The notes below the pieces were generated by a model. That model made no database searches, had not been told where the DNA came from, and saw only the letters and a list, made by a program, of their open reading frames with translations. Shown in pieces: positions 2,146-41,123 of a stretch of DNA of 64,000 bases (position 1 is its first letter; every line of letters starts with the position of its first letter). Both the position numbers and the translations under genes were made by a program. Source of the DNA: a virus; IMG/VR virus record IMGVR_UViG_3300014501_000012, positions 1 through 64,000 of that record, one strand, 5' to 3'.

Positions 2146-3333
2146 GTGCCGAAACACATCGACAACGTGCTCTCATGGGCGTCCGATGTCGAGGACGCCA
2201 CGATCGAGCAGGCGGCCAAGGCCAGCCGACTCCCGTTCGTCCGCGGGCACCTGGCCCTCATGCCCGATGCCCATGTCGGGATCGGGGCGACGGTGGGCTC
2301 CGTAATCCCGACCGAGGGAGCGATCATCCCTGCCGCCGTTGGAGTGGACATCGGGTGCGGCATGATCGCAGCCGACGTGGGACTCACCGCCGAGCGGTTG
2401 CCGGACGACCTCGGTCCGCTGCTGTCAGCGATCGAGGAGTCGATCCCGGCCGGAGTCGGGAAGGGTCGGGACAAGGACATCCCGGGCTCTGGGCGAGTGT
2501 TCATGCCGCGGGCGCTGACTGAGGCGGTTGCCTTCAAGTACATGGGCGACCGCCATCGGGCCATCGCCGCGAACCAGCTCGGAACGCTTGGGTCGGGGAA
2601 CCACTTCGTCGAGGTCTGTCTCGACGAGCGCGGCCTGGTCTGGGTCGTTCTGCACTCGGGCAGTCGGGGCGTCGGAAATAAGCTCGCTCAGCACCACATC
2701 CAAATCGCTCGGGGTCTGATGAAGGACTACTTCATCGAACTCGAGGACCCGGACCTGGCCTACCTCGTCCAGGGCAAGCCGGAGTTCGACGCCTACATCG
2801 CCGATATGAACTGGGCTCAGGACTACGCGCTGGAGAACCGCGAGGCCATGATGCGGTTCGCCCTCAGCGCGTTGGCCGATGCTTGCGAGATGACCGACGA
2901 GGAGCGCGAGGGGCCGGTCGACACCGTGAACTGCCACCACAACTTTACTCGCCGCGAGCACCAGGTCGGTCGCAACATGTGGATCACGCGCAAGGGGGCG
3001 ATCGGGGCGCGGGCCGGGCAACGGGGTGTGATCCCGGGGTCGATGGGCACCTCCAGTTACATCGTCCACGGCCTGGGCAACCCAACGTCGTACTACTCAT
3101 GTTCGCACGGGGCCGGGCGGCGGATGTCCCGGAGCAGGGCGCGCAAGGAGCTGACGGTCGACTCGCTGCGTGAGCAGATGGGCGACCGGACCTGGAACGC
3201 CGACAAGGCCGAGGCCCTGCTCGACGAGCACCCAGACTCGTACAAGTCGATCGATCAGGTCATGGCCGACCAAGCTGACCTCGTGGCGATCGACCATACG
3301 CTGCACCAGGTTCTGAATTACAAGGGGGCATGA
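2146..3333 (+). CDS. rtcB: RtcB-family RNA ligase, 395 aa
   Basis: Near full-length RtcB (395 aa; cellular enzymes are about 400-480). RtcB joins 2',3'-cyclic phosphate RNA ends to 5'-OH ends using GTP and Mn2+. Visible motifs in order: metal-binding GVDIGCGM (residues 66-73, Cys71), GSGNHFVEV near 150, HSGSRGVGN, NCHHNFTRRE, and SCSHGAGRRMSR around 318-329, containing the His that is guanylylated in the family. Starts at GTG 2146 with AAGGAGG. In a phage it could repair tRNA or mRNA cut by host anticodon nucleases or toxins; that role is inferred. Confidence 0.93.
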   Translation: MPKHIDNVLSWASDVEDATIEQAAKASRLPFVRGHLALMPDAHVGIGATVGSVIPTEGAIIPAAVGVDIGCGMIAADVGLTAERLPDDLGPLLSAIEESIPAGVGKGRDKDIPGSGRVFMPRALTEAVAFKYMGDRHRAIAANQLGTLGSGNHFVEVCLDERGLVWVVLHSGSRGVGNKLAQHHIQIARGLMKDYFIELEDPDLAYLVQGKPEFDAYIADMNWAQDYALENREAMMRFALSALADACEMTDEEREGPVDTVNCHHNFTRREHQVGRNMWITRKGAIGARAGQRGVIPGSMGTSSYIVHGLGNPTSYYSCSHGAGRRMSRSRARKELTVDSLREQMGDRTWNADKAEALLDEHPDSYKSIDQVMADQADLVAIDHTLHQVLNYKGA

Positions 3334-5452: not shown

Positions 5453-6148
5453 ATGATCGTGGGCAGTCTCGTCTACGCAGTGGTGGTCGTGGTGGTCGTG
5501 TTCGCCACCGCCATCGTCGCTATGCGTCACGAGAACAGTCGGAACCAGCGCCTCGCCGACGCGGTGGGCGCTCCGGACAGGTCCCGCCGGCTTGCTCTCC
5601 TCAAAGAGGTCAACCGCCCGATCGAGGAGGTCGTGGCCAAGGCCGAGCGCCGGGCGATCACGCAATGGAACGAGGAGCACGACAGCGACCAGCAGGTCGA
5701 ACTTCCGGGCGTGGCCGTGCCAGTCCTCCCGCCGGGGGTGTCGGCAATGTGGGCCGACGGCAGCACGACTCCTCTTCTGACCGAACTGACCCCGTGGGAT
5801 CAGCACTACGGCGTTGCCGGGGCTTGCGGGGACAAGGCGATCACCGAGAAGGGGCCGGGCCACGTCCACACCACCCGGGGCGGCGTGTCCTACCGCTGCT
5901 GGTACGGTTCCCTGGGCCCGGCTCCACCGCGGGGCGACTCGATCAGCTCCCCGCCCGTCACGGAACGGCCAGCTCCACCCAGGCCATCCGAGGCCCAGCG
6001 GCTTGCCGACGCGCGGGAACGCAAAGTGAAGGCCGACGAGTCTCGTCGGCGCGCCGAACGTCGAGCAGGCATGGTGCGAGGTCGAGGTCCGGCACCGACG
6101 GTCCCACCAGCGCCGGCTCCGCCACCGCCCGAGGTGACGTTCCGGTGA
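5453..6148 (+). CDS. Membrane-anchored hypothetical protein, 231 aa
   Basis: ATG 5453 lies 9 nt after AAGGAGG. ATG 5446, in another frame, is closer to the ribosome binding site but opens a shadow frame. Residues 2-22 form a hydrophobic helix (VGSLVYAVVVVVVVFATAIV), then a charged helical region, a middle part with two Cys (GACGD, YRCWYG), and a Pro/Arg-rich, probably disordered C-terminus. Likely a membrane-tethered protein with a cytoplasmic domain. Function unknown. It overlaps the next gene by 4 bp. Confidence 0.65.
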   Translation: MIVGSLVYAVVVVVVVFATAIVAMRHENSRNQRLADAVGAPDRSRRLALLKEVNRPIEEVVAKAERRAITQWNEEHDSDQQVELPGVAVPVLPPGVSAMWADGSTTPLLTELTPWDQHYGVAGACGDKAITEKGPGHVHTTRGGVSYRCWYGSLGPAPPRGDSISSPPVTERPAPPRPSEAQRLADARERKVKADESRRRAERRAGMVRGRGPAPTVPPAPAPPPPEVTFR

Positions 6149-6840
6149 GCCCGGCCCTGAGCGTGCAAGCAAGGATGAACCAGGCGGCGCGCCAGCGTGC
6201 CCGGTCCCGCGCCCGACGTCGGGTCGCCACCCTGCACCGGACCGAGTTCCATGTCCTCCTCGACGAGGTCCCGCGCCCGGTGAAGTCCGGGGACATCGCC
6301 CGGTGTATGCGCGAGATCTGTCGAAGCCACCCGGAGGACTTCGCTCGGGCCCAGAAGGTGGAGCGGGCGAAGGAGATGATGCCCCCGGCGCGTCAGACGA
6401 CGTGCGGCACGCTCGCCGGGCGGAGGAAGCACTACCGACACCACGAGCCGGTTTGCGAGTTGTGCCAGCGAGCGTGGCTGGCGACGCTTCCCTGGCGCAC
6501 GTGCAAAACGTGTGACCGGCCCTATCAGAGCGAGCGCCGCGTTTATTGCTCGACCGACTGCCAACAGCTCTACATGTACCTTCGCTACTTCGAGGCTCCC
6601 TGGCGGACCTGGGTCAACCGGGCGCGCTACGTGCTCAAATACCCAAAGCGGGCGAAGCCATGGGAGGTTGACCACGCCCGACGGGTGCTGGCGGAGTTCG
6701 AGGCGACGGGGAAGGTCGAGCGGCGACGCACGCTTCCACGAGGCGTCAAAGCGCCGGCCGCCGTAGCCTTGGCGAAGAAGATCGGGATCGACCTCGGTGA
6801 GGCGATCGAACGAGTGGAGGCGAAGGCGAATGTGGTGTGA
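6145..6840 (+). CDS. Zinc-ribbon protein, 231 aa
   Basis: GTG 6145 overlaps the previous stop. An Arg-rich N-terminus (QRARSRARRR) precedes a helical part, then CELC near residue 107 and CKTC...YCSTDC around 122-143, the C-x2-C...C-x3-C zinc knuckle widespread in phage small DNA-binding or HNH-associated proteins. No HNH catalytic motif is visible. The Lys-rich C-terminus could also contact nucleic acid. A DNA- or RNA-binding role is inferred. Confidence 0.6.
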   Translation: MSPALSVQARMNQAARQRARSRARRRVATLHRTEFHVLLDEVPRPVKSGDIARCMREICRSHPEDFARAQKVERAKEMMPPARQTTCGTLAGRRKHYRHHEPVCELCQRAWLATLPWRTCKTCDRPYQSERRVYCSTDCQQLYMYLRYFEAPWRTWVNRARYVLKYPKRAKPWEVDHARRVLAEFEATGKVERRRTLPRGVKAPAAVALAKKIGIDLGEAIERVEAKANVV

Positions 6841-7252
6841 CGACCCGACGTGCGAGCCGTGCGTCGAAGCGAAGTTCCTGCTGGCCGAGGAGCGATCCCG
6901 GCTCAAGTCCGGGGTGATCGTCGCGTCTGGTGGGATCGCTGCTCCCGTTGGCCCCTACGGCCTCCCATGGGGCCTCGCGGTCGCGGACGCCTACCCGTGG
7001 CGGTCGGTCCCGACGCCCCTGGGTCGCCCGTACCTCGATGCTCTCGGCGCCTTCCCGGCGTTCACAGCCAAGCGCGGTGGGATCACGTTCGTCCGGACGC
7101 CGCTGTTCACTGCCGACGGTGGCGCCCCGGTGAAGATCCACCGTCAGCGTCGACGCCCGCTGTCGAGGTGGTGGAACCGGCACTGGCCCTACGCTCGTAT
7201 CCGGGTTCTCCGGGCGGCGCTCGTGGCGTCGCGGGAACGAGAGGAGTGGTAG
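6830..7252 (+). CDS. Capsid-fragment-like protein, 140 aa
   Basis: ATG 6830 lies 11 bp inside the preceding gene. An N-terminal CDDPTCEPC cluster is followed by residues 28-85 that resemble a segment of the major capsid protein (25958-28261). VASGGIAAPVGPY matches VASGGLAAPVEPY, then LAVAD against LAVSD, and a KRGGITFV against ERGGIRLV, in the same order with similar spacing. The C-terminus is Arg/Trp-rich. It lies far from the capsid gene. Possible roles are a minor capsid component, assembly modulator or relic of a duplication; all inferred. Confidence 0.6.
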   Translation: MWCDDPTCEPCVEAKFLLAEERSRLKSGVIVASGGIAAPVGPYGLPWGLAVADAYPWRSVPTPLGRPYLDALGAFPAFTAKRGGITFVRTPLFTADGGAPVKIHRQRRRPLSRWWNRHWPYARIRVLRAALVASREREEW

Positions 7253-8325: not shown

Positions 8326-9885
8326 GTGACGACGATCACGGCTGAGGTTGACGGCCAGGACATGACCTGGCTCCTGGAGATGGACCCGGACGATCCGGAG
8401 TTCCGCCGGTACTACTACGAGGTCCTGGGGTCCGACGAGGAGCGCGCCGCGCTCGACGCGTGGCTCGAGAGTCGATCGCCGAAGAGGGCGTTCGCCCTGC
8501 TGGGGTACGAGCCACTCCCCAAGCAGTGGATCCTCCACAACCTCGCGCCCTACGCCGAGGGCGGCCCGTTCGACGTTCTCTACGGAGGCTCCGCTGGTTC
8601 GGCCAAATCAATGTCACTGCTGATGGAGGCACTGGCCTGGGCCTACCGGGTCCCGGGCATCGAGGTCTGGCTCGTGCGACGAACCTACCCGCAGCTCTAC
8701 GACTCGTTCATCGCCGTGCTCGAGGAGCGCAACTTCGCCCACGCGCTCGGCACGCGTTGGAACTCGAGCAAGCACAGTCTGCACCTGGCGAACGGCTCAA
8801 TCCTCCGGTTCCGCCACGCCCGGAACCTGGCCGACGCCGCGGACCTTCTCTCAGCTTCGTGCCAGCTCCTCGTTCTCGACGAGCGGACGACACTGCTCCC
8901 GATAGTGGTCGACAAACTGTCATCCCGCGTTCGATCGGCCGATTCGGACATCCCAGTCATCGGAATTAGATCGGGTAGCAATCCAGGAGACATCGGCCAC
9001 TCACGGGTCAAGGAGGACTTCATCGACCCATCCCCACTGGGACTCGAGCGCATCCCGGTCAAGATGAAGTCCGGCCGGCGAGCCGATCGGTTCTTCATCC
9101 CAGCCAAGCCCGGCGACAACCCGTATCTGGACGAGTCGTACTACGACCGGCTCTCACTCTTGCCGCTCGACATGCAGATCGCCTACCTCGAAGGTGACTG
9201 GTCGAAGTTCGAGGGCATGGCGTTTCCCGACTGGTCACCGAGCATCCACGTGGTGACGCCCGAGGAGTGCCCTATCGACATGGATTCGGTCCGTGCGGTT
9301 GGCGTTGACTACGGACTGGTGGCCCCGTTCTGCGCGCTATGGGGGGCCAAGGCGGCGGACAACACGATCGTCATCTACCGCGAGTTGTACGAGGTGGGGT
9401 TGACGCCCACCGAGCAGGCCGAACTCATCCTCGCCAGCGAGGCAGAAGGCGAGCGAACGCGCCAGCACCCGGTCCCGGTTTACCTTGACCCATCGTGCTG
9501 GATCCGCCAGCCCAACTCGCCCAAACCCTTCGGCAACGAACCGCCGAAGGGGTCGATCGCCGACGAGTACAAGCAGGCCGGCCTCCCAGTCCAGCGCGCC
9601 TACAACGACCGGATCGGTGGGAAGCGCCTGGTGGCCGCCGGCCTCAAGGTTCAAAAAGACGGGCGCCCGCGGCTGCTTGTGTACTCGACCTGCTCGAATC
9701 TGATCCGCACACTGCCGGGGTTGCCGCGGGACAAGACCCGGCCGGAGGACGTCGACACCGACGCGGAAGACCATGCATACGACGGGAGCCGGTATCTGCT
9801 CGGCGGCCTCACGGGCAAGCGCCGGGGCAAGGCCCGTACGTTCGGCGAGGAACAACGCTCGACGAGGGCGTCTTCGGTAGGGTAG
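8326..9885 (+). CDS. Terminase large subunit, 519 aa
   Basis: ATP-driven DNA packaging motor and nuclease. Residues 87-95, GGSAGSAKS, are the Walker A loop (a variant with Ala before Lys). CQLLVLDE near 178-185 is Walker B, followed by a coupling region with RSGSNPGD (about 213-220). The C-terminal nuclease begins at AVGVDYG near 325, with later acidic residues (EDVDTDAEDHAYDG). Length is normal for the family. It starts at GTG 8326 without a ribosome binding site, behind a -10-like box. Codons at both ATPase motifs are unusually AT-rich for this gene. Confidence 0.93.
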   Translation: MTTITAEVDGQDMTWLLEMDPDDPEFRRYYYEVLGSDEERAALDAWLESRSPKRAFALLGYEPLPKQWILHNLAPYAEGGPFDVLYGGSAGSAKSMSLLMEALAWAYRVPGIEVWLVRRTYPQLYDSFIAVLEERNFAHALGTRWNSSKHSLHLANGSILRFRHARNLADAADLLSASCQLLVLDERTTLLPIVVDKLSSRVRSADSDIPVIGIRSGSNPGDIGHSRVKEDFIDPSPLGLERIPVKMKSGRRADRFFIPAKPGDNPYLDESYYDRLSLLPLDMQIAYLEGDWSKFEGMAFPDWSPSIHVVTPEECPIDMDSVRAVGVDYGLVAPFCALWGAKAADNTIVIYRELYEVGLTPTEQAELILASEAEGERTRQHPVPVYLDPSCWIRQPNSPKPFGNEPPKGSIADEYKQAGLPVQRAYNDRIGGKRLVAAGLKVQKDGRPRLLVYSTCSNLIRTLPGLPRDKTRPEDVDTDAEDHAYDGSRYLLGGLTGKRRGKARTFGEEQRSTRASSVG

Positions 9886-11310: not shown

Positions 11311-14300
11311 ATGGCTCCTCGGAGCACGCGGACGAAGACGCCTCCGATCGACGCCGCGTCAACGGTCACCACGCCGAAGACCCCGGCCAAGCGCGCCAGC
11401 ACGAAGACGCTGGCCGAGCGAAAGACCCAGAACGCCGCCGATGTCCTCCGGGCCTACACCGCGTCGACGTCCAGGGAGGTCGAGCGCGTCAACCAGGTGC
11501 TCACCGCGGCGGCGGAGATCCTCGAGCCCGGCGCGAGCCCCGGGGACTACGGCGGACGGCCGAACGCGGCGACGCGGACTTGGCAACACGCTGCGTGGGG
11601 CTACGGGCGCTCTGTTCCCGAACTCGGCGCGGCACAGATGTTCGTCGGCAACTGCCTGTCACAGATCCAGCTCGCCGTCGGGAAACGAAGCCCGGACGGC
11701 TCGACCGAGATGGGGTTCGACGGCGACGAGCCGGTCGAGGGGCTTGACTCGAAGCTCGCCAACCAAGCGGCCGAACTGATCTCCCAGATTCGGGGCCCGA
11801 CCGGCGGCCAGTCCGAGGTCCTGCGGTCATTCGGCGAGAAGGTTTTCGTGATAGGAGAATGTTACGTAGTCCCTGAGCAACTGCCTTCGGGGAAGGTCTT
11901 CCAGGTCATGTCGACCCAGGAGCTGATGCCCGAGGGCAACGAGTGGGTGTACTACCCGGGCCCGGGGTTCAAGACTCGGCCGCTCGCCGAGGGCACAACC
12001 CCGATCCGCGTCTGGCGCCGGGACGGGCAGTACGGGATGATTGCCACCTCTTCGGTCCAGTCGTCGCTGGAGGTCCTCGAGGAGCTGGTCGTCCTCACTC
12101 GGCTAGTCCGCGCCAGCGCCATCTCCCGCATGGCCGTCGCGGGGATCTTGTTGCTCCCCGACGAGCTCGACTTCCCCGAGGAAGAGGCTGGCCCCGACGG
12201 GAACATGAGCGAGGCGCGCAACCCAGTTGCCGTCGACATCATCAACAACGGGTCGAAGGCGATCGACGACCCCGCGTCGGCCGCCGCGTGGATGCCGTTC
12301 GTTCTCCAGGCTCCGGGCGAGATCCTCCAGCACGTCAGGCACGTCCCGTTCCAGACCGACGACCAGGAGAATGTGATCAAGCGGACCGAGGCGTTGCAAC
12401 GCCTGGCCCAAGGATTAGATCTTCCAGTAGAAATCGTAATGGGCCATCAGTGCGTCGATCACCAAACCGAGATCCTGACTACTCGCGGGTGGCTTTCCAA
12501 CGACGAAGTTCAGGCCGGCGACACGGCGTTGACTCTCAACCACGAGACTGGCGCATCGGAGTGGCAACCGGTCGACGCCGTGCACCACTACAACGTGGTG
12601 GACGAACGGATGCTCTCGATCGAACGCAGGTCGCACTCGTCGCTCACTACCGCCAACCATCGGTGGCCGGTCATATCTCACGGATGGGGCAAGCGACGTT
12701 GGAAGACATCCGAGACGCTCTCGACCGATACCGACATCATCTGCGCTGCGCCGCACCAGACCTTCGACCCCGAGCCGAAGTGGTCCGATGACCTCGTGGA
12801 ACTAGTCGCCTGGTACTACACCGAGGGCACCGACATCCGGGCCGGATCAGCCGTCATCTATCAGTCAATGAAAGCCAATCCGGTGCATGTCGCCCGGATA
12901 CGGGCCACTCTCACCAGCCTGGTAGGACCCCCGACCGAGTCGATGCACGATGCCTCGCGATCTCGGGCCCAATGCACGTTCCCCGGTTGCGAGTGGCTCG
13001 TGCACAGCCACGGCCTCTGCGATGCCCATCGGGCTCAGCGAATCCAGGGAATTCCCCTGCGGCCTGTGCGTCGTACCACCGATCCGCCCGCACCAAAGGA
13101 AGCAGTGCCGGCCTGGCGGGAGTCGGCACCTAACGATCGGGGAATGGTCCTGTTCCACCTGAACAAGACCCTGGCTGATCACGTGCGCGTGCTAGCTCCC
13201 GCCAAGGTCCCGTCAGGCGAGTTCATTCGGTCGCTCTCTAAGGCCCAACTAGAGCTGTTCATAGAACGGTCGGTGGACGGGGATGGGTGTCGGATCGGCG
13301 ATGGCGACTCGATTCAGTTCCACCAGGCGGACCAGCGGCGAACCGACGCCTTCGAGCTTGCATGCGTACTTGCCGGGCGAGCGGTGACGCGTCGAACGGG
13401 AATATCCACTGGTGGGTTTAAGGACTCGGTTCGTCACCAGGTGGTCACCCGGTCCAATGACGTGGTGTCTATAAGGCCTGGACGGGAATGGGTCACCTAC
13501 ACCGGTCAGGTATGGTGCCCCACCACCGGCAACGGAACCTGGCTCGCCCGGCGCAAGGGCACCGTGTACTTCACAGGGAATAGCACAACGTTCGCCAACG
13601 CCGCCCAAGTCAGCCAGGACACTTTCAATCTCCACATCAAGCCAACGATCCAACTCTTCTGCGACGCGCTCACGATCACCTACCTCTGGCCCGCGATCGC
13701 GATCGCCCGCGGGATCACACCGGAGACCATCGCCGTCTCGGGCTATCCGGCGGACATCCTGACGGTGGGCGTGACGTTCGACGCGTCGAAGCTCATCAGC
13801 CGGCCCGACCGCGCCAAGGACATCATCGACCTGTACATCCACGACATGACGTTCTCCGCAGTGAAGATCTCAGAGGCGCGTGAGGCGGTCGGACTCGACC
13901 CCGATGGCGGGCCCGACGACGACGAGATCTCCAAGCGTGTCGACGCCTACCGCCTGGGCCGGATCCGAGAGGTCATAGCGGGCCCAGTCGACGACGCGGC
14001 GGTCCCGATCCAAGACGCCTCGGCGGGCAAGGCGGTGGTCCCGGGTCAGTCCGCCGGGTCCAAACTCATCGGCCAGGAAGCCCCGTCAGCCTCGACGTCC
14101 GGGGCCGAGAGTGAGGCGGTCGTTGACAAGACGGCGATCCAGGATGCCGAGGACTCCTCGACGAGCGTCCGGACGTCCACTCCCCTCGCCGAACGCATAG
14201 CAGGGGCGGCGGAGATCGTCGCCGAGCGCGCCGTCGAGCGCGTCGGGGCGAAGCTCCGGAGCAAGTCCCGCGGCAACGCCTTCTCCGAGGCCGAGCGCGC

Positions 14301-14580
14301 CGCGTGCTCGGGGGTCGCCAACGCCAAGCTTCCGCGGGTGCTCGGCAGGGAGATCGTCGAGCGGATCGTGGGGAACACCGACGAGCTGATGCTGGCCGAA
14401 CTCAAGCATCTGGCGAAGAAGATCGAGGAGTGGGCGACGGCCGACGATCATCCAGACCCCCCGGCCGTGGTCAGCGAGGCGGCGTGCATAGCCATCGAGG
14501 CCGCCCGGGCATGGCTCTACGCCGACCCCGAGCCGATCGACCCCGCCCGGTTCTCGACCCTTGAGCAGGCATCGGTCTGA
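11311..14580 (+). CDS. Portal protein interrupted by an intein (1089 aa precursor)
   Basis: The extein (712 aa after splicing) forms the dodecameric portal ring through which DNA enters the head. GEKVFVIGECYVVPEQL near 175-190, GLDLPVEIVMGHQ at 368-380 and QDTFNLHIKPTIQLF after the intein are portal-like. The precursor is interrupted after Gln380 by a 377-residue intein (381-757) and resumes at Ser758. The extein C-terminus is helical and Ala/Glu-rich. ATG 11311 with GAGGGG 6 nt upstream. Codons just before the intein are unusually AT-rich. The neighbours (terminase, MuF-like protein, protease) fit. Confidence 0.9.
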   Translation: MAPRSTRTKTPPIDAASTVTTPKTPAKRASTKTLAERKTQNAADVLRAYTASTSREVERVNQVLTAAAEILEPGASPGDYGGRPNAATRTWQHAAWGYGRSVPELGAAQMFVGNCLSQIQLAVGKRSPDGSTEMGFDGDEPVEGLDSKLANQAAELISQIRGPTGGQSEVLRSFGEKVFVIGECYVVPEQLPSGKVFQVMSTQELMPEGNEWVYYPGPGFKTRPLAEGTTPIRVWRRDGQYGMIATSSVQSSLEVLEELVVLTRLVRASAISRMAVAGILLLPDELDFPEEEAGPDGNMSEARNPVAVDIINNGSKAIDDPASAAAWMPFVLQAPGEILQHVRHVPFQTDDQENVIKRTEALQRLAQGLDLPVEIVMGHQCVDHQTEILTTRGWLSNDEVQAGDTALTLNHETGASEWQPVDAVHHYNVVDERMLSIERRSHSSLTTANHRWPVISHGWGKRRWKTSETLSTDTDIICAAPHQTFDPEPKWSDDLVELVAWYYTEGTDIRAGSAVIYQSMKANPVHVARIRATLTSLVGPPTESMHDASRSRAQCTFPGCEWLVHSHGLCDAHRAQRIQGIPLRPVRRTTDPPAPKEAVPAWRESAPNDRGMVLFHLNKTLADHVRVLAPAKVPSGEFIRSLSKAQLELFIERSVDGDGCRIGDGDSIQFHQADQRRTDAFELACVLAGRAVTRRTGISTGGFKDSVRHQVVTRSNDVVSIRPGREWVTYTGQVWCPTTGNGTWLARRKGTVYFTGNSTTFANAAQVSQDTFNLHIKPTIQLFCDALTITYLWPAIAIARGITPETIAVSGYPADILTVGVTFDASKLISRPDRAKDIIDLYIHDMTFSAVKISEAREAVGLDPDGGPDDDEISKRVDAYRLGRIREVIAGPVDDAAVPIQDASAGKAVVPGQSAGSKLIGQEAPSASTSGAESEAVVDKTAIQDAEDSSTSVRTSTPLAERIAGAAEIVAERAVERVGAKLRSKSRGNAFSEAERAACSGVANAKLPRVLGREIVERIVGNTDELMLAELKHLAKKIEEWATADDHPDPPAVVSEAACIAIEAARAWLYADPEPIDPARFSTLEQASV
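12451..13581 (+). mobile_element. LAGLIDADG-containing intein in the portal gene
   Basis: Residues 381-757 of the precursor. Block A begins at Cys381 (CVDHQTEILTTRGW). Block B is SLTTANHRWPV, with TTANH at 446-450. LVELVAWYYTEGT (495-507) and LELFIERSVDGDG (647-659) are the two LAGLIDADG-type motifs of the homing endonuclease. Block F is VWCPTTGNGTWL, and the intein ends VYFTGN before extein Ser758. The penultimate residue is Gly rather than the usual His, which some active inteins tolerate. A C-x4-C...C-x2-H zinc cluster (555-573) lies within the endonuclease. Splicing looks possible and homing plausible. Confidence 0.9.
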
Positions 14581-16410: not shown

Positions 16411-16468
16411 TACCGCCGACCCACCGACCTGATGTGCCAGACTTCCAAACGTCGAGGAGGCAATGACC

Positions 16469-18772
16469 ATGCGCCAGATGTGGGGTCCGTTCACGCGTCG
16501 CGAGCACCCCGGGGTGCCCGCAGATCACTTCCTGCCTGCCTGCGGCCGCCACGCCGCGGTCGATCACCGAGGCCGGATCACTGCCCTGGTGGCTGATGGC
16601 CCCGACCCTGGTCCGATGGTGTTCGGAGCGATCCCGCTGAGCGCCGGACCGTCGGACACCACCGACGCGGCGTGGGACGGCGGAGCCCAGGAGAAGAACC
16701 TCAACAACGAGGACGGCAAGGCCGAGTACCGCCAGATGTACGCCTGGGTCGATTCGGACGCTGACCAGGACACAAAGTCGGCCTACTCGTTCCCGCATCA
16801 CATGGTCGATGGTGACGGCAAGGTCGGAGCGGCCAACACCACGGCCTGCTCGAGCGGGATCGGGGTTCTGAACGGCGGGCGCGGGGTCTCGGTCAAAGAC
16901 GCCGACTGGTTCGATGACCGGGCCGGGATCTTCAAGCACCTGGTAGCCCACCTCTCGGCCTCCGGGGTCAAGGACGAGGACCTGCCGAAGCTCGACGACA
17001 TGACCGTGGTCGACGAGCGCGAAGCCCTGGTGGTCCGACTGATCGCCACGGGCAAGCTGGACGATGCCGGCATGGCCGAGCTGCTCACCGAGGACTCGAT
17101 CCTCCACGACCCGGACAACGCCCGCCTCACCGAGTACGTCGTCGCCTGCGAGACGCCCGACACCACGACCACGATCACGAGGATCGAGACCGGCGAGCAA
17201 CTGGCGGAGAAGCTCGCCGAACTGCGCGAACGCCAGGGCGAGACCCCGCGGATCAAGGTCAAGCTCGCCGCCTTCGACGACCTCGAGGTCGAGATGGCGA
17301 TCCACTGGGACCCCGAGGTCTGGGACGAGTCCTGGGTCAACGAGGACGGGACGATCGGACGCAAGGGTGCCTTCGTCTCGAACGGTCCCGAGACCCCGTT
17401 CGCCATGGTCGCGGCCGGCGGGGATCTTCCACAGCTCGTGGACAACCCCGGAGCGCCCTGGCACGCCATCTTGTGCGTCGAGGGCCTGCGGACCGACGAG
17501 GATCCAGGCCGGGAGATCATGCCCATGGCCTGCGAGTTCCCCGACCTTCCGGTCTCGCTCCGCCTCCAGATCCACGACGAGGGCGGTCACTGGGGCGCGG
17601 TCACCTGCGGGCGCATCGACACCATGGAGCGCCAGGACATGCAGGGCTACAACGCCATCGCAGGAGCGGGGGTCTTCGGGACTGACGAGCACGGCCAGCT
17701 CGCCCAGTTGCTCGTGACCGAGCAGACCCAGCGGTTCATCTCGATCGATCCCCGGGCGGTCACGGTCGAGGTGGTCGAGGTCGAGATCAACACCTCGGGG
17801 ATTTACGACGGCTACGACGACGAGTGCGAGCCCGACCTGTACGACTGGTGGATGCGCTACACCAGCCTCACGATCGGCGCGGCCACCATCGTGGCAACCC
17901 CGGCCTTGCAGCAGGCGGTGATCACCCTCGCCGACGTGCCGCTTCCCGAGACCCCGATCGCCATCGCCAACGCCCAGACCTCGACCGTCGTGGCCTCGGC
18001 GGGCCCGCTCGCACCTCCCGGGGCGTGGTTCGAGGACCCGGCGTTCCACGTCGGAGATCCCCGCCTCGTCCGCCAGGCCGACGGGCACTACGCCTGCCCG
18101 CTGACGGTCGACGACGACGGCCGGGTCTACGGCCACGCGGCCTACTGGGGCTCGAAGCACACGGGGTTCCCCGGACGCACGGTCCATCCCCCGCACTCCC
18201 CGACGTACGCGTACTTCACCACCGGCCACGTCAAGACGGCCGAGGGCAAGGTCGTGCCGGCGGGCCAGGTCACGATGGGCTGCGGACACGCGACGACCGA
18301 CCTCGACCAACGCCGGGCGGTCGCCCACTATGACGGCGGGTACGGCGCGATCCAGATGGCGGACATCCAGGCGGGCGAGGACGACTTCGGGATCTGGGTG
18401 GCGGGCTCGCTCCGCTCGGACGTGACCGAGACCGACATCGCCAAGTTCCGGGCTCAGAACCTCTCGGGTGACTGGCGGACGGTGGCGGGCACGCTGCACA
18501 TGGTCGCCTGCCTGGCCGTCCCGGTGCCGGGGTTCCCGATCTCCCGCGAGTCCCTGATCGCGGCCGGGGCCGAGGTCATCGACTCCCACGCGGCACGCGC
18601 CGGGGTAGACCCCGAGGACCACGACGTCGTTCTTTCGCTCGTCGCGGCCGGACGGGTCCACCGGGCTCCTCCCGAGGAACGGTTGCAGCGCCTCGAGCAC
18701 CAGATGGACTCGATGCGGGCCCGCGAGCGGCGTGAGAGCGTGCTGGCCGACCTGCGGGGTCTGTCGGCATGA
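16469..18772 (+). CDS. Capsid maturation protease-like protein, 767 aa
   Basis: Start placed at ATG 16469, 8 nt after GAGGAGG; ATG 16463 is only 2 nt from it. The N-terminus has PHHMVDGDGKVGAANTTAC and a helical region. The C-terminal half has RVYGHAAYWGSKHTGFPGR, HSPTYAYFTTGHV, TMGCGHATTDL, AHYDGGYGA and DFGIWVAGSLRSDV, the conserved order seen in actinophage capsid maturation proteases. The end is helical, possibly scaffold-like. It would cleave the scaffold or capsid N-terminus during head assembly. Large for the family because of a roughly 300-residue middle section with no recognised fold. Confidence 0.75.
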   Translation: MRQMWGPFTRREHPGVPADHFLPACGRHAAVDHRGRITALVADGPDPGPMVFGAIPLSAGPSDTTDAAWDGGAQEKNLNNEDGKAEYRQMYAWVDSDADQDTKSAYSFPHHMVDGDGKVGAANTTACSSGIGVLNGGRGVSVKDADWFDDRAGIFKHLVAHLSASGVKDEDLPKLDDMTVVDEREALVVRLIATGKLDDAGMAELLTEDSILHDPDNARLTEYVVACETPDTTTTITRIETGEQLAEKLAELRERQGETPRIKVKLAAFDDLEVEMAIHWDPEVWDESWVNEDGTIGRKGAFVSNGPETPFAMVAAGGDLPQLVDNPGAPWHAILCVEGLRTDEDPGREIMPMACEFPDLPVSLRLQIHDEGGHWGAVTCGRIDTMERQDMQGYNAIAGAGVFGTDEHGQLAQLLVTEQTQRFISIDPRAVTVEVVEVEINTSGIYDGYDDECEPDLYDWWMRYTSLTIGAATIVATPALQQAVITLADVPLPETPIAIANAQTSTVVASAGPLAPPGAWFEDPAFHVGDPRLVRQADGHYACPLTVDDDGRVYGHAAYWGSKHTGFPGRTVHPPHSPTYAYFTTGHVKTAEGKVVPAGQVTMGCGHATTDLDQRRAVAHYDGGYGAIQMADIQAGEDDFGIWVAGSLRSDVTETDIAKFRAQNLSGDWRTVAGTLHMVACLAVPVPGFPISRESLIAAGAEVIDSHAARAGVDPEDHDVVLSLVAAGRVHRAPPEERLQRLEHQMDSMRARERRESVLADLRGLSA

Positions 18773-25816: not shown

Positions 25817-25825
25817 CCATGCGTG

Positions 25826-25844
25826 ACACGGGACGCGCCCGTGT
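25826..25844 (+). terminator. Hairpin before the capsid gene
   Basis: A perfect 7-bp stem, ACACGGG-ACGCG-CCCGTGT, lies 10 bp after the previous stop and is followed by a short T/A-containing stretch. It could end the fibre-gene transcript or protect the capsid mRNA 5' end. The remaining leader to GTG 25958 holds no other clear element except GGAGG. Confidence 0.5.
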
Positions 25845-25957
25845 GCTTTACTTCCAGCCCAAGGACACAGTCCCCGCGTAGGACCCCGGCCCGGCCGGCG
25901 GAGAAGTGCGGACCCACAGGGTGCCGGTCAGTTCCGTTTCGAGCTGGAGGTCCCGTC

Positions 25958-28261
25958 GTGGGTGAGTCCTTGAAGAACCGTTTCGGTCAGATCGACGAGC
26001 AGGGTCGCATCGTCGCCCTCGTCGCCGAAGGCCTCCCGGCATGGCCGGACGACGGCAACCTGTCGGAGTTCACCGACGAGCAGCTGGCCGAGGTCGAGGC
26101 GGCTCTTCTCACCGAGAGCGCCGAGATCATGGGTGCCGGCGACGATGCCGACATCGATCGGGCGGAGCAGATCGTCGAGCGCGTGGGTGCTCTTCGCACC
26201 GAAGCCGCGACCCGGATGGCCGCGGCCGACGAGCCCGAAACCAGCCCTGAGCTGGAGGAACTGGCGGCCCTGAGCGACGAGGACCGTGCGGCCGTCGTCC
26301 AGTACGCAGCCGACGTGGCCGCCATCCCACCGCCCGCCGACGAGGACGCCGCCCTCGCCCGCCGGCGCGACGCCCTCGCCCGCCTGGGCGACCTGACCCC
26401 GCCCCCGGCGCCGGAACTCCAGGGCCTGAGCCACGAGGCCGCCGCCTCCTACGCCGAGGCAACCGCCGCTGGCATGGCCCGTGGGTTTGCCCCCGTGGTC
26501 GAGGCCCTGACCACGGCCGCGACCGCCCTGGCCACGGCCAACACCCCGCCCGCCCCCGGAACGACCATCACCGCCCGCGAGCTGGGGCGCTACCGTCCCT
26601 CGCAGTTCGCTCCGGCCGCCGGGACCCCCGAGGCCCCGCGTCCCCGCGGCCATCTCGTCCACCGAGGAGATGTCGCCGGGATGGCCATGGGCGCTGAGTT
26701 CACCTCGATGCGCCAACTGGTCGACGCCTTCGTCACCCGCCACCGGACCATCGGCCAGTCGGCGGCCGAGGACGAGCAAGTCCTGATCGCCTCCTACCAG
26801 CAGGACGACCCTCCGCCCGAGCGCGACCTCCGCCACATGAGCGACAGCCGCGAGGTGCGCCAGATGATCGACCGGGTGGTGGGACCCGATGCCATGGGCC
26901 GCGACCCGTGGAACCTCAGCCGGGAGGTCCCGATCAGCCGGGGCGGCATCGCCGTGACCGACTCAGAGGCCCTGGTGGCCTCCGGGGGCCTGGCCGCGCC
27001 GGTCGAGCCGTACTACCCCCAGCTGGTCCTCGCTGTCTCGGACCGCCCGGGGCTCGGATCGATGCCCGGGTTCATCACCGAGCGCGGAGGCATCCGGCTG
27101 GTGCTCCCGCCCAACCTCAACACGCTGGCGAACGCCGTCGCGCCGGGGACGTTCGCCGACGGCGTGGCCGCGACCTCGACTGCCTGGACCTCGGCCACCG
27201 CTGAATTCACCGACGCCGACGTTGGGCAGCCGATCATCGGCACCGACATCCCCGCCGGGACGATCATCAACTCGGTGACCAACGGCACGACCCTCGTGCT
27301 GTCGGCGGCCACCACCGCCTCGGCCACCGGCCTGACGTTCTACCTGCCCTCGCGCAACCCGACCAACCTCGGAGGCCCCGTGGGGAAGGTCACCGCGGCC
27401 CAGGACGCGGCCGGACCGCCGAACTCGGTCAAGTTCACCTACGACGTCGCGAACGGGACGCAGGTCGAGCACGACGTGTACTCGGTCTACACGTCCCTCC
27501 AGTTCGGCAACCTGACGGCGCGGACGTTCCCCGAGCAGGTCGAGGCGAACATCCGCCTCGCCAACGCCCTGGCCGCCCGCGTCGCCGAGACGGCGATGCT
27601 GGACTACATCACCGGCTGGTCGACCCTGATCACGGCGGCCAAGACCTTCGGCACCGCCCGCCAACTGCTCGCCCAGTTCGAGCACATGGCGGCGATGTAC
27701 CGGAACAACAACCGGATGGACCCCGCCGCCGTGCTGCGTTTGGGCATCCCGGCCTGGGCGCTCAACGCCATGCGTTCGGACTACATCTCGTCCTTCATCG
27801 GGGGAGCGGAGAACTGGGGACTGTCGGACGAGGAGCTGAACTCCTGGTTCGCCGACCGCAACATCCTCCCGTTCTTCTACCTGGACGGGCCGTCGGACAT
27901 CTCCCAGCTCTTCCCGGTCATCGGGTCGGGCGCGATCAACACCGGGGGGACGAATACCGCCACCCCGGTCGCGCTGCCGGACTACCCGGGACAGGGAGCG
28001 ACGACCTCGTTCCGGACCAAGGTCGTCTCGTTCATGTGGGCCGAGGGGACGTGGCTCGGGTTGACGACGGGCGAGCTCAACATCGGGCTCGTGCGGGACT
28101 CGATCTTGAACTCGAGTAACAGATTCCGTAACTTCGAGGAAGTATGGGAATCGCCTGCGTTCGTCGGGCTCCAGTCCCTCCGCTGCGTTCACACCGTCGC
28201 CGCCGACGGCACCTACGGTGCGGCCGTGTCGATCACGCTCGGTGTCGGGTCCGGCCTGTAA
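25958..28261 (+). CDS. Major capsid protein with N-terminal scaffold-like region, 767 aa
   Basis: GTG 25958, with GGAGG 7 nt upstream; longer in-frame starts lack support. Residues 1-260 are acidic and helical (Ala/Glu/Asp-rich), typical of a delta/scaffold domain removed by the protease. The HK97-type capsid domain starts near 310 (GGIAVTDSEALVASGG) and includes FGNLTARTFPEQVEANI, FEHMAAMYRNNNRMD, PAWALNAMRSDY and the conserved end RDSILNSSNRFRNFEEVWES. A roughly 65-residue beta module (about nt 27160-27350) is inserted after RGGIRLVLPPNL. The same module recurs in five other virion proteins. Codons at the RDSILN motif are AT-rich. Confidence 0.88.
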   Translation: MGESLKNRFGQIDEQGRIVALVAEGLPAWPDDGNLSEFTDEQLAEVEAALLTESAEIMGAGDDADIDRAEQIVERVGALRTEAATRMAAADEPETSPELEELAALSDEDRAAVVQYAADVAAIPPPADEDAALARRRDALARLGDLTPPPAPELQGLSHEAAASYAEATAAGMARGFAPVVEALTTAATALATANTPPAPGTTITARELGRYRPSQFAPAAGTPEAPRPRGHLVHRGDVAGMAMGAEFTSMRQLVDAFVTRHRTIGQSAAEDEQVLIASYQQDDPPPERDLRHMSDSREVRQMIDRVVGPDAMGRDPWNLSREVPISRGGIAVTDSEALVASGGLAAPVEPYYPQLVLAVSDRPGLGSMPGFITERGGIRLVLPPNLNTLANAVAPGTFADGVAATSTAWTSATAEFTDADVGQPIIGTDIPAGTIINSVTNGTTLVLSAATTASATGLTFYLPSRNPTNLGGPVGKVTAAQDAAGPPNSVKFTYDVANGTQVEHDVYSVYTSLQFGNLTARTFPEQVEANIRLANALAARVAETAMLDYITGWSTLITAAKTFGTARQLLAQFEHMAAMYRNNNRMDPAAVLRLGIPAWALNAMRSDYISSFIGGAENWGLSDEELNSWFADRNILPFFYLDGPSDISQLFPVIGSGAINTGGTNTATPVALPDYPGQGATTSFRTKVVSFMWAEGTWLGLTTGELNIGLVRDSILNSSNRFRNFEEVWESPAFVGLQSLRCVHTVAADGTYGAAVSITLGVGSGL

Positions 28262-28324: not shown

Positions 28325-29725
28325 ATGGCAGTCCAGGAGTTCTCAGCCGTAACAGGGCTCGACTTCACCCTGGAGACTCCGGTCCCGCTGGTCTCACCGC
28401 CCCTCTCGCTCCTTGGCGAGGCCCGGTCGCTGATCGACCTGGCGGGGATGTACGCCCGCCGGCAGGCGGCGTTGGAGAAGATCCAGTCCGGGGCCGAGCA
28501 ACTCGAGGCCTACGACCGCGACGGGGTCGTGGGCGACGACGACCAGCCGGGCGAGGCAGACAGCCTCGAGGACACGGTCAAGGCGCTCGAGCAGCAGATG
28601 TCCGAGTGGACGCGTGAGTTCGAGACCTGGGACGACGGCATCGCCCGGATGCAGGGCTGGGAGCAGGCGATCCAGTACCTCCCCGAGCTGGGCAACGCCG
28701 AGTCGATGTCGGTCTTCGCCCCGGGCACGGTCCCGCCCGTCGGCTCTGCGCTGGCATCGGGTGCGACGAAGCAGACCGGGTCCAACCAGGAGCCGTTCTA
28801 CTGGTACGACCCGTTCGTCGCGGTAGGCCGCGACAGCCGGTCGCTTTTCGGGTGGCCGAACACCGACTTCGCCTCGCGGCTCCAGCGGTGCCAGCGCGCC
28901 CTCCTCGCCCACGAGTCGTGGCAGGCCGAGTACGAGTTCTGGACGGGCACACAGGTCCCGACGAACTACCACCTCTCGGCGAGCCCGAGCACGGCCGTGG
29001 TCAGTCCCCACCGGACGATCGATGCCTGGCCGAACCCCCTCGCCCCGCCCGGGACGACGCTCGGAACCCCCGAGAGCCTGAGCGACTCGCTCGCCGCCCT
29101 CGACCAGTCGATCGCCAACGCCGACGCCGGCACGGGGATGATCCACGCCTCGTGCTACCTCGTCCAGAAGTGGGCGCAGGTCTACCCGTACCTCCGGGAC
29201 CCGTCGGGGAACATCCGGACGGTGAACAACAACCTGATCGTCCCCGGCTACGGCTACCCCGGGACCGGGCCGGACCAGGCGAGCCGGTCGGTGACCGACG
29301 TGGTCACGACGGACGGAAGCCCCGACATCACCTCGGCCTCGGCCGCCTTCACGGACCTCGACATCGGCCGCCCGATCAACGAGACCGACGCCGGGGGTCA
29401 CATCCCGGCCGGCGCGGTGATCCTCACGGTGACGAGCCCCACCGCCGCCGTCCTGAGCGTCCCGGCCACGGGAGCGGCCACGGGGATCGATGCGACGCTT
29501 CCGGGGGTCGGGGGCAACGCGACGGGGTCGGTCGTCCAGTGGGCCTACGCGACGGAGATGGTTTTCCACCTCCAGGGCGACATCGTCTCGTACCCGTCCG
29601 ACCTCCGCGAGATCTCGCCGGCCTTGTACCACAACTCGGCCGACATCCGCGTCGAGCGGTCCCACGCTCTGCTCACCAACCGGCTCCTCCGGGCAGCCGT
29701 CGCCGTCGACACGTCCACCACGTAA
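28325..29725 (+). CDS. Putative capsid-associated virion protein, 466 aa
   Basis: ATG 28325 after GGGGAGG. Residues 60-110 are a charged helical stretch (KALEQQMSEWTREFETWDDG). A mixed region follows (FYWYDPFVAVGRDSR, TNYHLSASPSTAVV), then IVPGYGYPGTGPD. The inserted beta module starts at SRSVTDVVTTDG (about residue 320-395), followed by VQWAYATEMVFHLQGDIV and RSHALLTNRLLRAAVAV. Proteins with the last segments follow the capsid gene in several actinophages; the function is not established. Most likely structural. Confidence 0.6.
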   Translation: MAVQEFSAVTGLDFTLETPVPLVSPPLSLLGEARSLIDLAGMYARRQAALEKIQSGAEQLEAYDRDGVVGDDDQPGEADSLEDTVKALEQQMSEWTREFETWDDGIARMQGWEQAIQYLPELGNAESMSVFAPGTVPPVGSALASGATKQTGSNQEPFYWYDPFVAVGRDSRSLFGWPNTDFASRLQRCQRALLAHESWQAEYEFWTGTQVPTNYHLSASPSTAVVSPHRTIDAWPNPLAPPGTTLGTPESLSDSLAALDQSIANADAGTGMIHASCYLVQKWAQVYPYLRDPSGNIRTVNNNLIVPGYGYPGTGPDQASRSVTDVVTTDGSPDITSASAAFTDLDIGRPINETDAGGHIPAGAVILTVTSPTAAVLSVPATGAATGIDATLPGVGGNATGSVVQWAYATEMVFHLQGDIVSYPSDLREISPALYHNSADIRVERSHALLTNRLLRAAVAVDTSTT

Positions 29726-40005: not shown

Positions 40006-41123
40006 ACAGCGCCGGCTACCCGACCTATCTGGTCAACGGCGCGGTCTCGGTCAACAGCGGGGTCGCCGACGAGAACGGGTCGTTCTGGTACCTCGACGGG
40101 GAGATCGCCGGGTGGGACTCGCCGGACATGCGCCAGACGATGCTCACGCGGATCGGCAACACGCCCTCGGCCGACGGGGAGATCGCGGCGGACAACCACT
40201 ACCGCGGCCGATCGCTGGTCTTCACCCTCATCGCCGAGTGCGCGTCCGAGGCCGCCCGGGAAGCGTCTCGCCTCCTCCTGGCCGGCGCGCTGGACCTGAT
40301 CAGCACCACCGGGACGTTCCTGGCCGAGGAGGTGATCCCCAAACAGGTCTCGATCATCCGCTCGGGGAACTCGAACCAGGGCAAGCTTGTGATGACCGAC
40401 TGTGGCTTCGCCATGAAGAACGCCACCGAGGCCCTGTCGCGCACCGTCACCGATGCCGTGACCACGGGCAGTTCGGAGAACCTGGTCAGCGCGTCGGCGA
40501 ACTTCGGGACGGGTGACATCGGGCAACCGGTGACGGGGACGAACATCCCGCCCGGCACCGTGGTCGTCTCGATCACGTCCACGATCGAGGTCGTGATGTC
40601 GAACGAGGCCACCGCGTCAGGGAGCGACCAGACGGTGACGATCGGCGGGTACCCGGGCTTCCCCGTCGGGACCGTCGTGTGGCTGCTCAAGGCCGAGATC
40701 GAGATCTACGCGCAGGACCCCCGGAAATACTCGCCCGTCCCCAACGAGGCACCGTTCGAGTCGAACGTGGCGATGGTGACGAACGAGGGGAACACCGCCA
40801 CCCAGAACGCGGTGATCACGATCGAGGTGACCGGAGGCGGGGACGGTCCGTTCCACATCGAGATCGTCAGCGTCGCCGACATGGAGTTGCTCGTCCCCCC
40901 GCTCCCGGCCGGCGCGCCCGCCCTCGATCCGATCCCGACCGAACTCGTGGTCGACCTCTACAACAAGACCATCACCGACGGGGAGGAACGCAGCTACTAC
41001 TACCTGCGGAACCTCCAGACCCCGTGGCTCACGATTCCCCCGGGGGTCTGGGCGGTCTCGATCAGCGGGGCGGGCGGCAGCAACATCCCCGGGAGCGTCG
41101 TCAGTTACTCGGCGTGGATCTGA
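40002..41123 (+). CDS. Distal tail (Dit-like) protein with inserted beta module, 373 aa
   Basis: ATG 40002 overlaps the tape measure stop (ATGA). The first 145 residues contain SFWYLDGEIAGWDSPDMRQ and RSLVFTLIAECASEAAREAS, as in siphovirus distal tail proteins. A beta module starting SRTVTDAVTTGSSEN (about 147-217) is inserted. Then LLKAEIEIYAQDPRKYSP, a hallmark of this family, and a C-terminal galectin-like beta region (PTELVVDLYNKTITDG, WLTIPPGVWAVSISG). It forms the hub joining tube and tail tip. Confidence 0.75.
   Translation: MNSAGYPTYLVNGAVSVNSGVADENGSFWYLDGEIAGWDSPDMRQTMLTRIGNTPSADGEIAADNHYRGRSLVFTLIAECASEAAREASRLLLAGALDLISTTGTFLAEEVIPKQVSIIRSGNSNQGKLVMTDCGFAMKNATEALSRTVTDAVTTGSSENLVSASANFGTGDIGQPVTGTNIPPGTVVVSITSTIEVVMSNEATASGSDQTVTIGGYPGFPVGTVVWLLKAEIEIYAQDPRKYSPVPNEAPFESNVAMVTNEGNTATQNAVITIEVTGGGDGPFHIEIVSVADMELLVPPLPAGAPALDPIPTELVVDLYNKTITDGEERSYYYLRNLQTPWLTIPPGVWAVSISGAGGSNIPGSVVSYSAWI

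What the first reader, a model, noticed from the sequence alone, without database searches (positions are those of the whole stretch)
6830..7252. Small zinc-knuckle protein carrying a copy of a capsid segment
The 140-aa product contains VASGGIAAPVGPY, LAVAD and RGGITFV in the same order and similar spacing as VASGGLAAPVEPY, LAVSD and RGGIRLV of the major capsid protein encoded 19 kb away. The match stops at the point where the capsid has its inserted module. A truncated capsid piece fused to a CDDPTCEPC cluster could be a minor vertex protein, an assembly dosage regulator, or an anti-phage decoy that poisons competing capsids.
Basis: partly seen in the sequence, partly recalled or inferred. 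Interest (0 to 1): 0.68.

Follow-up and report, generated by a model that had tools for sequence, protein, structure and literature searches.

The report
Small protein echoing the phage capsid
A 140-residue phage protein of unknown function carries a diverged copy of the stretch where the phage's main shell protein is probably cut and docked during head assembly, so it is most likely a small protein packed into or onto the phage head; nothing quite like it was found in any other genome searched.

Summary
The ORF at 6830-7252 is a real gene in an actinobacteriophage-like 84.8-kb virus contig. Its residues 29-94 are genuinely related to the N-arm/first E-loop-strand segment of the phage's own major capsid protein (MCP). 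A profile of 16 MCPs picks only the MCP and this ORF out of 1051 window ORFs (E 3.5e-8; E 5.5e-7 when the window clade is left out), and both sequence blocks beat 20,000 shuffles. Four of 18 shared residues share codons, so this is no recent copy.

Three details in the finding fail. Spacing differs by 15 residues. The Cys cluster is not a zinc knuckle. The match ends about 10 residues before the MCP insert.

New lead: the same motif, [VIL]-x-A-[S/A]-G-G-x-x-x-P, also brackets the protease domain of this phage's MuF-protease. In many mycobacteriophages it is shared between the MCP and the MuF-protease linker, and it occurs in one small protein of phage Hendrix. It looks like a maturation-cleavage/docking element.

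Best reading: a small, basic head protein with an N-terminal propeptide that enters the procapsid by imitating the MCP N-arm. Vertex, size-control and decoy roles are untested. No stand-alone relative was found in any collection searched.

The parts
6830..7252 (+). P0001: 140-aa orphan gene with MCP N-arm-like segment
6830..6925 (+). residues 1-32: three-Cys start and predicted helix 9-26, net charge -2; proposed propeptide ending ...GVIVA|S
   Evidence: (low-confidence model); cleavage inferred
6914..6958 (+). block A (aa 29-43) VIVASGGIAAPVGPY, matches MCP N-arm ALVASGGLAAPVEPY
6989..7024 (+). 12-residue insertion AYPWRSVPTPLG absent from MCPs
7025..7102 (+). block B (aa 66-91) RPYLDALGAFPAFTAKRGGITFVRTP, matches MCP family RPVRDALPxFxADRGGIRFxxPP
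7139..7243 (+). basic Arg/Trp-rich C-terminal helix (aa 104-138; predicted helix 111-138, pLDDT about 80)
25823..28261 (+). major capsid protein (812 aa)
   Evidence: PHROG_777 major head protein E=1.9e-42
26969..27121 (+). MCP residues 383-433: N-arm/first E-loop-strand segment shared with P0001
16463..18772 (+). MuF/capsid maturation protease (769 aa)
   Evidence: homologous to the annotated MuF-protease of prophi_GD43-6 by alignment; lies between portal and MCP
17402..17431 (+). protease N-junction motif AMVAAGGDLP
17984..18016 (+). protease C-junction motif TVVASAGPLAP
6145..6840 (+). upstream HNH-like gene overlapping P0001
   Evidence: PHROG_5351 HNH E=1.5e-4
8326..9885 (+). terminase large subunit
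   Evidence: Pfam Terminase_3 E=2.1e-5, PHROG_2

Best explanation
P0001 is a small, basic minor head protein built around a diverged copy of the MCP N-arm and first E-loop strand. Shown: its residues 29-94 are related to that MCP segment, the relation is old, and the protein sequence was kept while the codons were not. Inferred: the motif [VIL]-x-A-[S/A]-G-G-x-x-x-P is the maturation protease's cut-and-dock element. In the MCP it lies at the junction of the long N-terminal (scaffold-like) region and the shell domain; in the MuF-protease it lies at both ends of the protease domain. P0001 would enter the procapsid, lose a 32-residue propeptide after IVA|S, and leave a 108-residue, +11 protein whose start lies along the shell lattice like an MCP N-arm and whose Arg/Trp helix faces DNA or another partner. 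Rough odds: homology 0.93, acts in or on the head 0.5, cut by the protease 0.4.
For: Homology; P0001 keeps the columns that are invariant in the 16 MCPs. Age and selection: 18 of 29 residues identical in the two blocks but only 4 of the 18 share a codon. Motif at both protease-domain junctions here, and in related forms in relatives L011, L114, L113, L005; 3 sites in the protease against 0.11 expected by composition, plus MVAAGG. Motif shared by MCP and MuF-protease linker in Godines, KayaCho and GD43-6, with 902 places in 563 phage records. Hendrix gp44 is another non-MCP carrier. Precedent: the SPN3US prohead protease removes 20- and 24-residue propeptides from minor head proteins and cuts itself at the same motif (PMC10052503).
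Against: No virion data, no cleavage data, and no protease specificity known for this family. The shared sequence runs 15 to 50 residues past the supposed cut, more than a protease needs, so docking alone could explain it. The gene sits among HNH/terminase genes, not in the head cluster. No relative of the stand-alone gene was found, so selection on the protein cannot be measured directly. The P0001 model is poor (mean pLDDT 55). Simple N-junction forms of the motif are missing in L113 and L005.
Confidence: 0.38

Rival explanations
1. Assembly modulator: P0001 uses its N-arm copy to occupy N-arm or E-loop sites and so tunes capsid size, MCP supply or a special vertex, as capsid-protein relatives do in satellites.
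For: Homologous segment is the N-arm, which contacts neighbours' E-loops in actinophage capsids (PMC10635136). SaPIbov5 Ccm, a capsid-protein homolog, takes over pentamers (PMC8569155); SaPI1 CpmB and the 80alpha scaffold appear to compete for the N-arm helix (statement in PMC12749128).
Against: P0001 lacks the HK97 fold, so it cannot form a capsomer; it sits in the phage's own genome; nothing specific points to size control.
Confidence: 0.2
2. Captured fragment: an MCP piece was moved next to an HNH-like endonuclease gene and fused to new ends; the ORF is expressed but its MCP-like part has little function.
For: HNH-like gene directly upstream; orphan status in all collections; no such gene in G005 (69.7 kb).
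Against: Family-invariant residues are kept although codons are scrambled, which implies long selection on the protein; the ORF is intact and coupled to its neighbours.
Confidence: 0.17
3. Decoy: the protein imitates the MCP N-arm to occupy a host sensor of capsid proteins, or to poison capsids of competing phages.
For: Bacterial sensors of MCP exist (CapRel, PMC9712102; a TIR-based system, PMC11312562; found).
Against: No evidence in sequence; no defence-related neighbours were recognised; the copied motif is also shared with the phage's own protease, which points to assembly.
Confidence: 0.08
4. Packaging accessory: a basic protein encoded between HNH and terminase that helps packaging, the MCP-like part docking the packaging machine on the shell.
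For: Position between the HNH-like gene and TerL; basic C-terminal helix; no small terminase gene was recognised.
Against: No family hit; two further genes lie between it and TerL.
Confidence: 0.12
5. Chance or convergent likeness with no common origin with the MCP.
For: Only about 55 aligned residues, with a 15-residue insertion.
Against: Two blocks in order, each beyond 20,000 shuffles with the full profile; only MCPs and P0001 hit in 1.0 Mb of related sequence.
Confidence: 0.05

Closest known systems
HK97-fold major capsid proteins of actinobacteriophages (PHROG_777; GMA2, Forza, Phendrix, Mimi, Hendrix)
   Same: N-arm/first E-loop-strand segment: VA[SA]GGxxAPxxxxY ... RPxxDALPxFxAxRGGIxFxxPP
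   Different: P0001 has none of the rest of the capsid protein, has a 12+3-residue insertion, a three-Cys start and a basic tail
MuF-capsid maturation protease fusions of mycobacteriophages (Godines, KayaCho, GD43-6)
   Same: carry the same MCP N-arm motif (VASGGWxAPSEQ) outside the MCP
   Different: only the first block is shared; P0001 also has the RGGI block and no protease domain
Hendrix gp44 (NC_047977, 254 aa, unknown function)
   Same: small non-MCP protein with an MCP N-arm-like motif near its start, encoded between terminase and portal
   Different: no RGGI block, acidic, unrelated outside the motif
SaPIbov5 Ccm (and SaPI1 CpmB)
   Same: an extra copy or competitor of a capsid assembly element encoded by a separate gene
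   Different: Ccm is a full HK97-fold capsid protein and both belong to satellites; P0001 is a fragment in the phage itself
Prohead-protease-processed minor head proteins (SPN3US gp45, gp225; T4 internal proteins, the latter from general knowledge)
   Same: small proteins with a short N-terminal propeptide and the protease's own motif; P0001 would be of this type
   Different: no sequence relation; processing of P0001 is not shown

Membership tests
HK97-fold major capsid protein | N-arm/first E-loop-strand motif of this subfamily | tested here: met
HK97-fold major capsid protein | complete fold: spine helix, P and A domains | tested here: not met
   140 aa; no alignment past residue 94; only E=0.19 to PHROG_777
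CCHC zinc knuckle | C-x2-C-x4-H-x4-C | tested here: not met
   C3-x4-C8-x2-C11, no fourth ligand nearby; no Pfam hit
Substrate of the capsid maturation protease | carries the motif found at the MCP scaffold/shell junction and at protease self-junctions | tested here: met
Substrate of the capsid maturation protease | is cut at the motif | not testable with these tools
   needs N-terminal sequencing or mass spectrometry
Internal or minor head protein (T4 IP / SPN3US gp45-like) | small basic mature protein with short N-terminal propeptide | tested here: inconclusive
   size and charge fit (+11 after residue 32); propeptide removal only inferred
Internal or minor head protein (T4 IP / SPN3US gp45-like) | present in virions | not testable with these tools
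   no proteomics; source is a metagenomic virus contig
Ccm-type capsid size redirector | capsid-protein homolog able to form capsomers | tested here: not met
   only the N-arm segment is present

The most novel reading that the evidence does not exclude
The MCP N-arm peptide serves as a portable tag in actinobacteriophages: separate proteins (the MuF-protease, P0001, Hendrix gp44) carry a copy of it to be built into, and cut within, the procapsid, and P0001 is a stand-alone cargo or shell protein made from little more than this tag plus a basic tail.
Probability: 0.25. Interest if true: 0.7.

Novelty: new variant of a known kind. Interest (0 to 1): 0.5.

Why it matters
How minor proteins are directed into actinophage heads, and where their maturation proteases cut, could not be found in the papers searched. 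A motif shared by the capsid protein, the protease that matures it and a separate small protein gives a testable cut-and-dock signal. It could be tested at once in cultured mycobacteriophages and could identify further head cargo by motif search.

Tried and rejected
P0001 relatives: none by tblastn in phages (E<=0.1, then only spurious at E<=10), plasmids, viral contigs or genome contigs, nor by two degenerate DNA patterns in viral contigs. The motif query on viral contigs gave only MCPs. The terminase route (80 loci) gave no P0001-like ORF. In relatives G001 and G003 the contig ends before the equivalent place, so absence there is not shown; G005 (69.7 kb, portal and a different terminase covered) lacks it. 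Predicted structures: MCP model unusable (pLDDT 35), P0001 poor, so no fold search was run. No solved structure by sequence or profile for this MCP subfamily. Nocardia phage NTR1 'tape measure' with the motif is a mislabelled MCP by profile score and position. Zinc knuckle rejected. Recent duplication rejected on codons.

Full report
WHAT IS THERE. The window is bases 1-64000 of an 84.8-kb IMG/VR virus record. Its gene order runs RtcB, HNH-like gene, the finding's gene, two small genes, terminase, portal, protease, fibre, major capsid protein (MCP), and its closest cultured relatives by MCP infect Arthrobacter, Gordonia and Microbacterium. The ORF at 6830-7252 encodes 140 residues (P0001). It starts with ATG behind GGAGG, overlaps the end of the HNH-like gene, and its TAG overlaps the GTG start of the next gene. 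Codon-position GC and codon usage are those of the phage's other genes, and the other five frames score worse. It is a real gene by layout and composition.

IS THE CAPSID LIKENESS REAL. BLASTP of P0001 against the MCP gives E=4e-8 for residues 26-91. I aligned 16 MCPs: the window's, three viral-contig relatives (L003, L004, L005) and 12 from named phages. A 54-column profile of the segment, run on all 1051 stop-to-stop ORFs of the window, finds the MCP and then P0001 (E=3.5e-8, 29.2 bits); the next ORF has E=0.07. The best of 20,000 shuffles of P0001 scores 11.4 bits. With only the 12 named-phage MCPs in the profile P0001 still has E=5.5e-7. Two blocks scored apart (VASGGxxAP and RGGI with its surroundings) are each unmatched by 20,000 shuffles with the full profile; with the 12 references alone, block A is matched by 54 and block B by none. 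In 105 loci, 1.0 Mb, nothing but MCPs and P0001 hits the profile. The likeness is therefore homology, or very close imitation, and not chance. It is not recent: of 29 aligned residues in the two blocks 18 are identical, and only 4 of those use the same codon. P0001 resembles the MCPs of the window clade most (VASGGLAAPVEPY).

DETAILS THAT DO NOT HOLD. The distance from VASGG to RGG is 51 residues in P0001 and 36 in the MCP; P0001 has 12+3 extra residues. The three cysteines do not make a zinc knuckle. The match ends near MCP residue 433; the MCP's inserted module (447-513, weakly related to a phage decoration protein in PDB 8eci, E=0.0018) begins some ten residues later.

WHAT THE SEGMENT IS. 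In the MCP it follows a long N-terminal region (about 380 residues, scaffold-like by inference) and starts the shell part: it is the N-arm and the first strand leading into the E-loop. That placement follows from the position of the conserved GG..P and RGGI elements relative to other HK97-type capsid proteins, which is my inference; no usable structure could be predicted or matched. In solved actinophage capsids the N-arm folds over a neighbour's E-loop (PMC10635136), and in phage D3 the first residues of the N-arm are flexible and may expose the cleavage site (PMC12749128).

THE MOTIF IS SHARED MORE WIDELY. Searching phages with an MCP motif gave more places than records. Following these up showed the same motif outside MCPs: in the MuF-protease of mycobacterial prophage GD43-6 (VASGGWAAPSEQEYE), in the MuF-proteases of Godines and KayaCho, and in the 254-aa Hendrix gp44 (LVAPSGWCAPSEQLYD). 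A query with the protease-linker version matches 902 places in 563 phage records, and most of the listed cluster-B records show two places. In the window's own protease the motif stands at the start (AMVAAGGDLP) and the end (TVVASAGPLAP) of the protease domain, and related forms stand at the same places in the relatives (AMVAAGAD, MTAAGAD; VTASGEP, VVASGAP, VTAAGGP, ITAAGD). The protease has three [VIL][VTI]A[SA][GA] sites against 0.11 expected from its composition, besides MVAAGG; most other genes have none. A motif at the scaffold/shell junction of the MCP and at both edges of the enzyme that cuts it is what a self-processing maturation protease's cut site would look like. Herpesvirus assemblin, from general knowledge, cuts V-x-A|S. 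But conservation runs far beyond a cut site, so docking is at least part of it.

BEST EXPLANATION. P0001 is most likely a small head protein with a 32-residue propeptide (net charge -2), the cut-and-dock element, the first E-loop strand, and a basic C-terminal helix (predicted helix 111-138, pLDDT about 80 in an otherwise poor model); the part after residue 32 has net charge +11. SPN3US provides a close functional parallel: its prohead protease cuts itself and removes 20- and 24-residue propeptides from minor head proteins (PMC10052503). Shown here: gene, homology, age, motif sharing. Inferred: cutting, docking, presence in the head. Rivals are an assembly modulator of the Ccm/Cpm sort (PMC8569155), a captured fragment, a packaging accessory, and the decoy.

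NOVELTY. No stand-alone relative was found in 50,697 phage records, 72,556 plasmids, viral contigs or genome contigs at the sensitivities used. Two of the nearer virus relatives are truncated before the equivalent locus, so the gene may be less rare than it looks; a third, 69.7 kb long, lacks it. I rate it a new variant of a known kind: capsid-protein-derived assembly helpers are known, but a stand-alone N-arm piece sharing its motif with the maturation protease I did not find described in the papers searched.

Noticed in passing
window 11311-14580 (portal, residues about 402-780): The portal gene carries an intein-like insertion (starts CVDHQTEILTTRGW, ends TGN|S) that is absent from the portals of relatives G005 and G003.
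   Followed up: partly
L113:736-3540: The terminase of relative G005 also carries an intein-like insertion (CLPAGTQIVMPDG ... VLVHN|C), and its terminase is unrelated by sequence search to the window's: the packaging module was swapped between relatives.
   Followed up: partly
window 25823-28261 and 16463-18772: MCP and MuF-protease share a second motif near their N-termini, GRI(T/V)ALVA(D/E)G, found in no other ORF of the sequences scanned; it may direct both into the procapsid.
   Followed up: partly
L116:17952-18716 (Hendrix gp44): A 254-aa acidic protein of unknown function carries an MCP N-arm motif near its start.
   Followed up: partly
window 27161-27361, 29330-29503, 40443-40634: The module inserted in the MCP (TSATAEFTDADVGQPI..IPAGTII) recurs in at least two other proteins of the phage and resembles a phage decoration protein (PDB 8eci).
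   Followed up: no
L119:787-2823 (Nocardia phage NTR1 Orf34): Annotated as tape measure protein but by profile score and position it is the major capsid protein.
   Followed up: yes
window 2146-3333: A gene for an RtcB-type RNA ligase, recognised by eye from its sequence.
   Followed up: no
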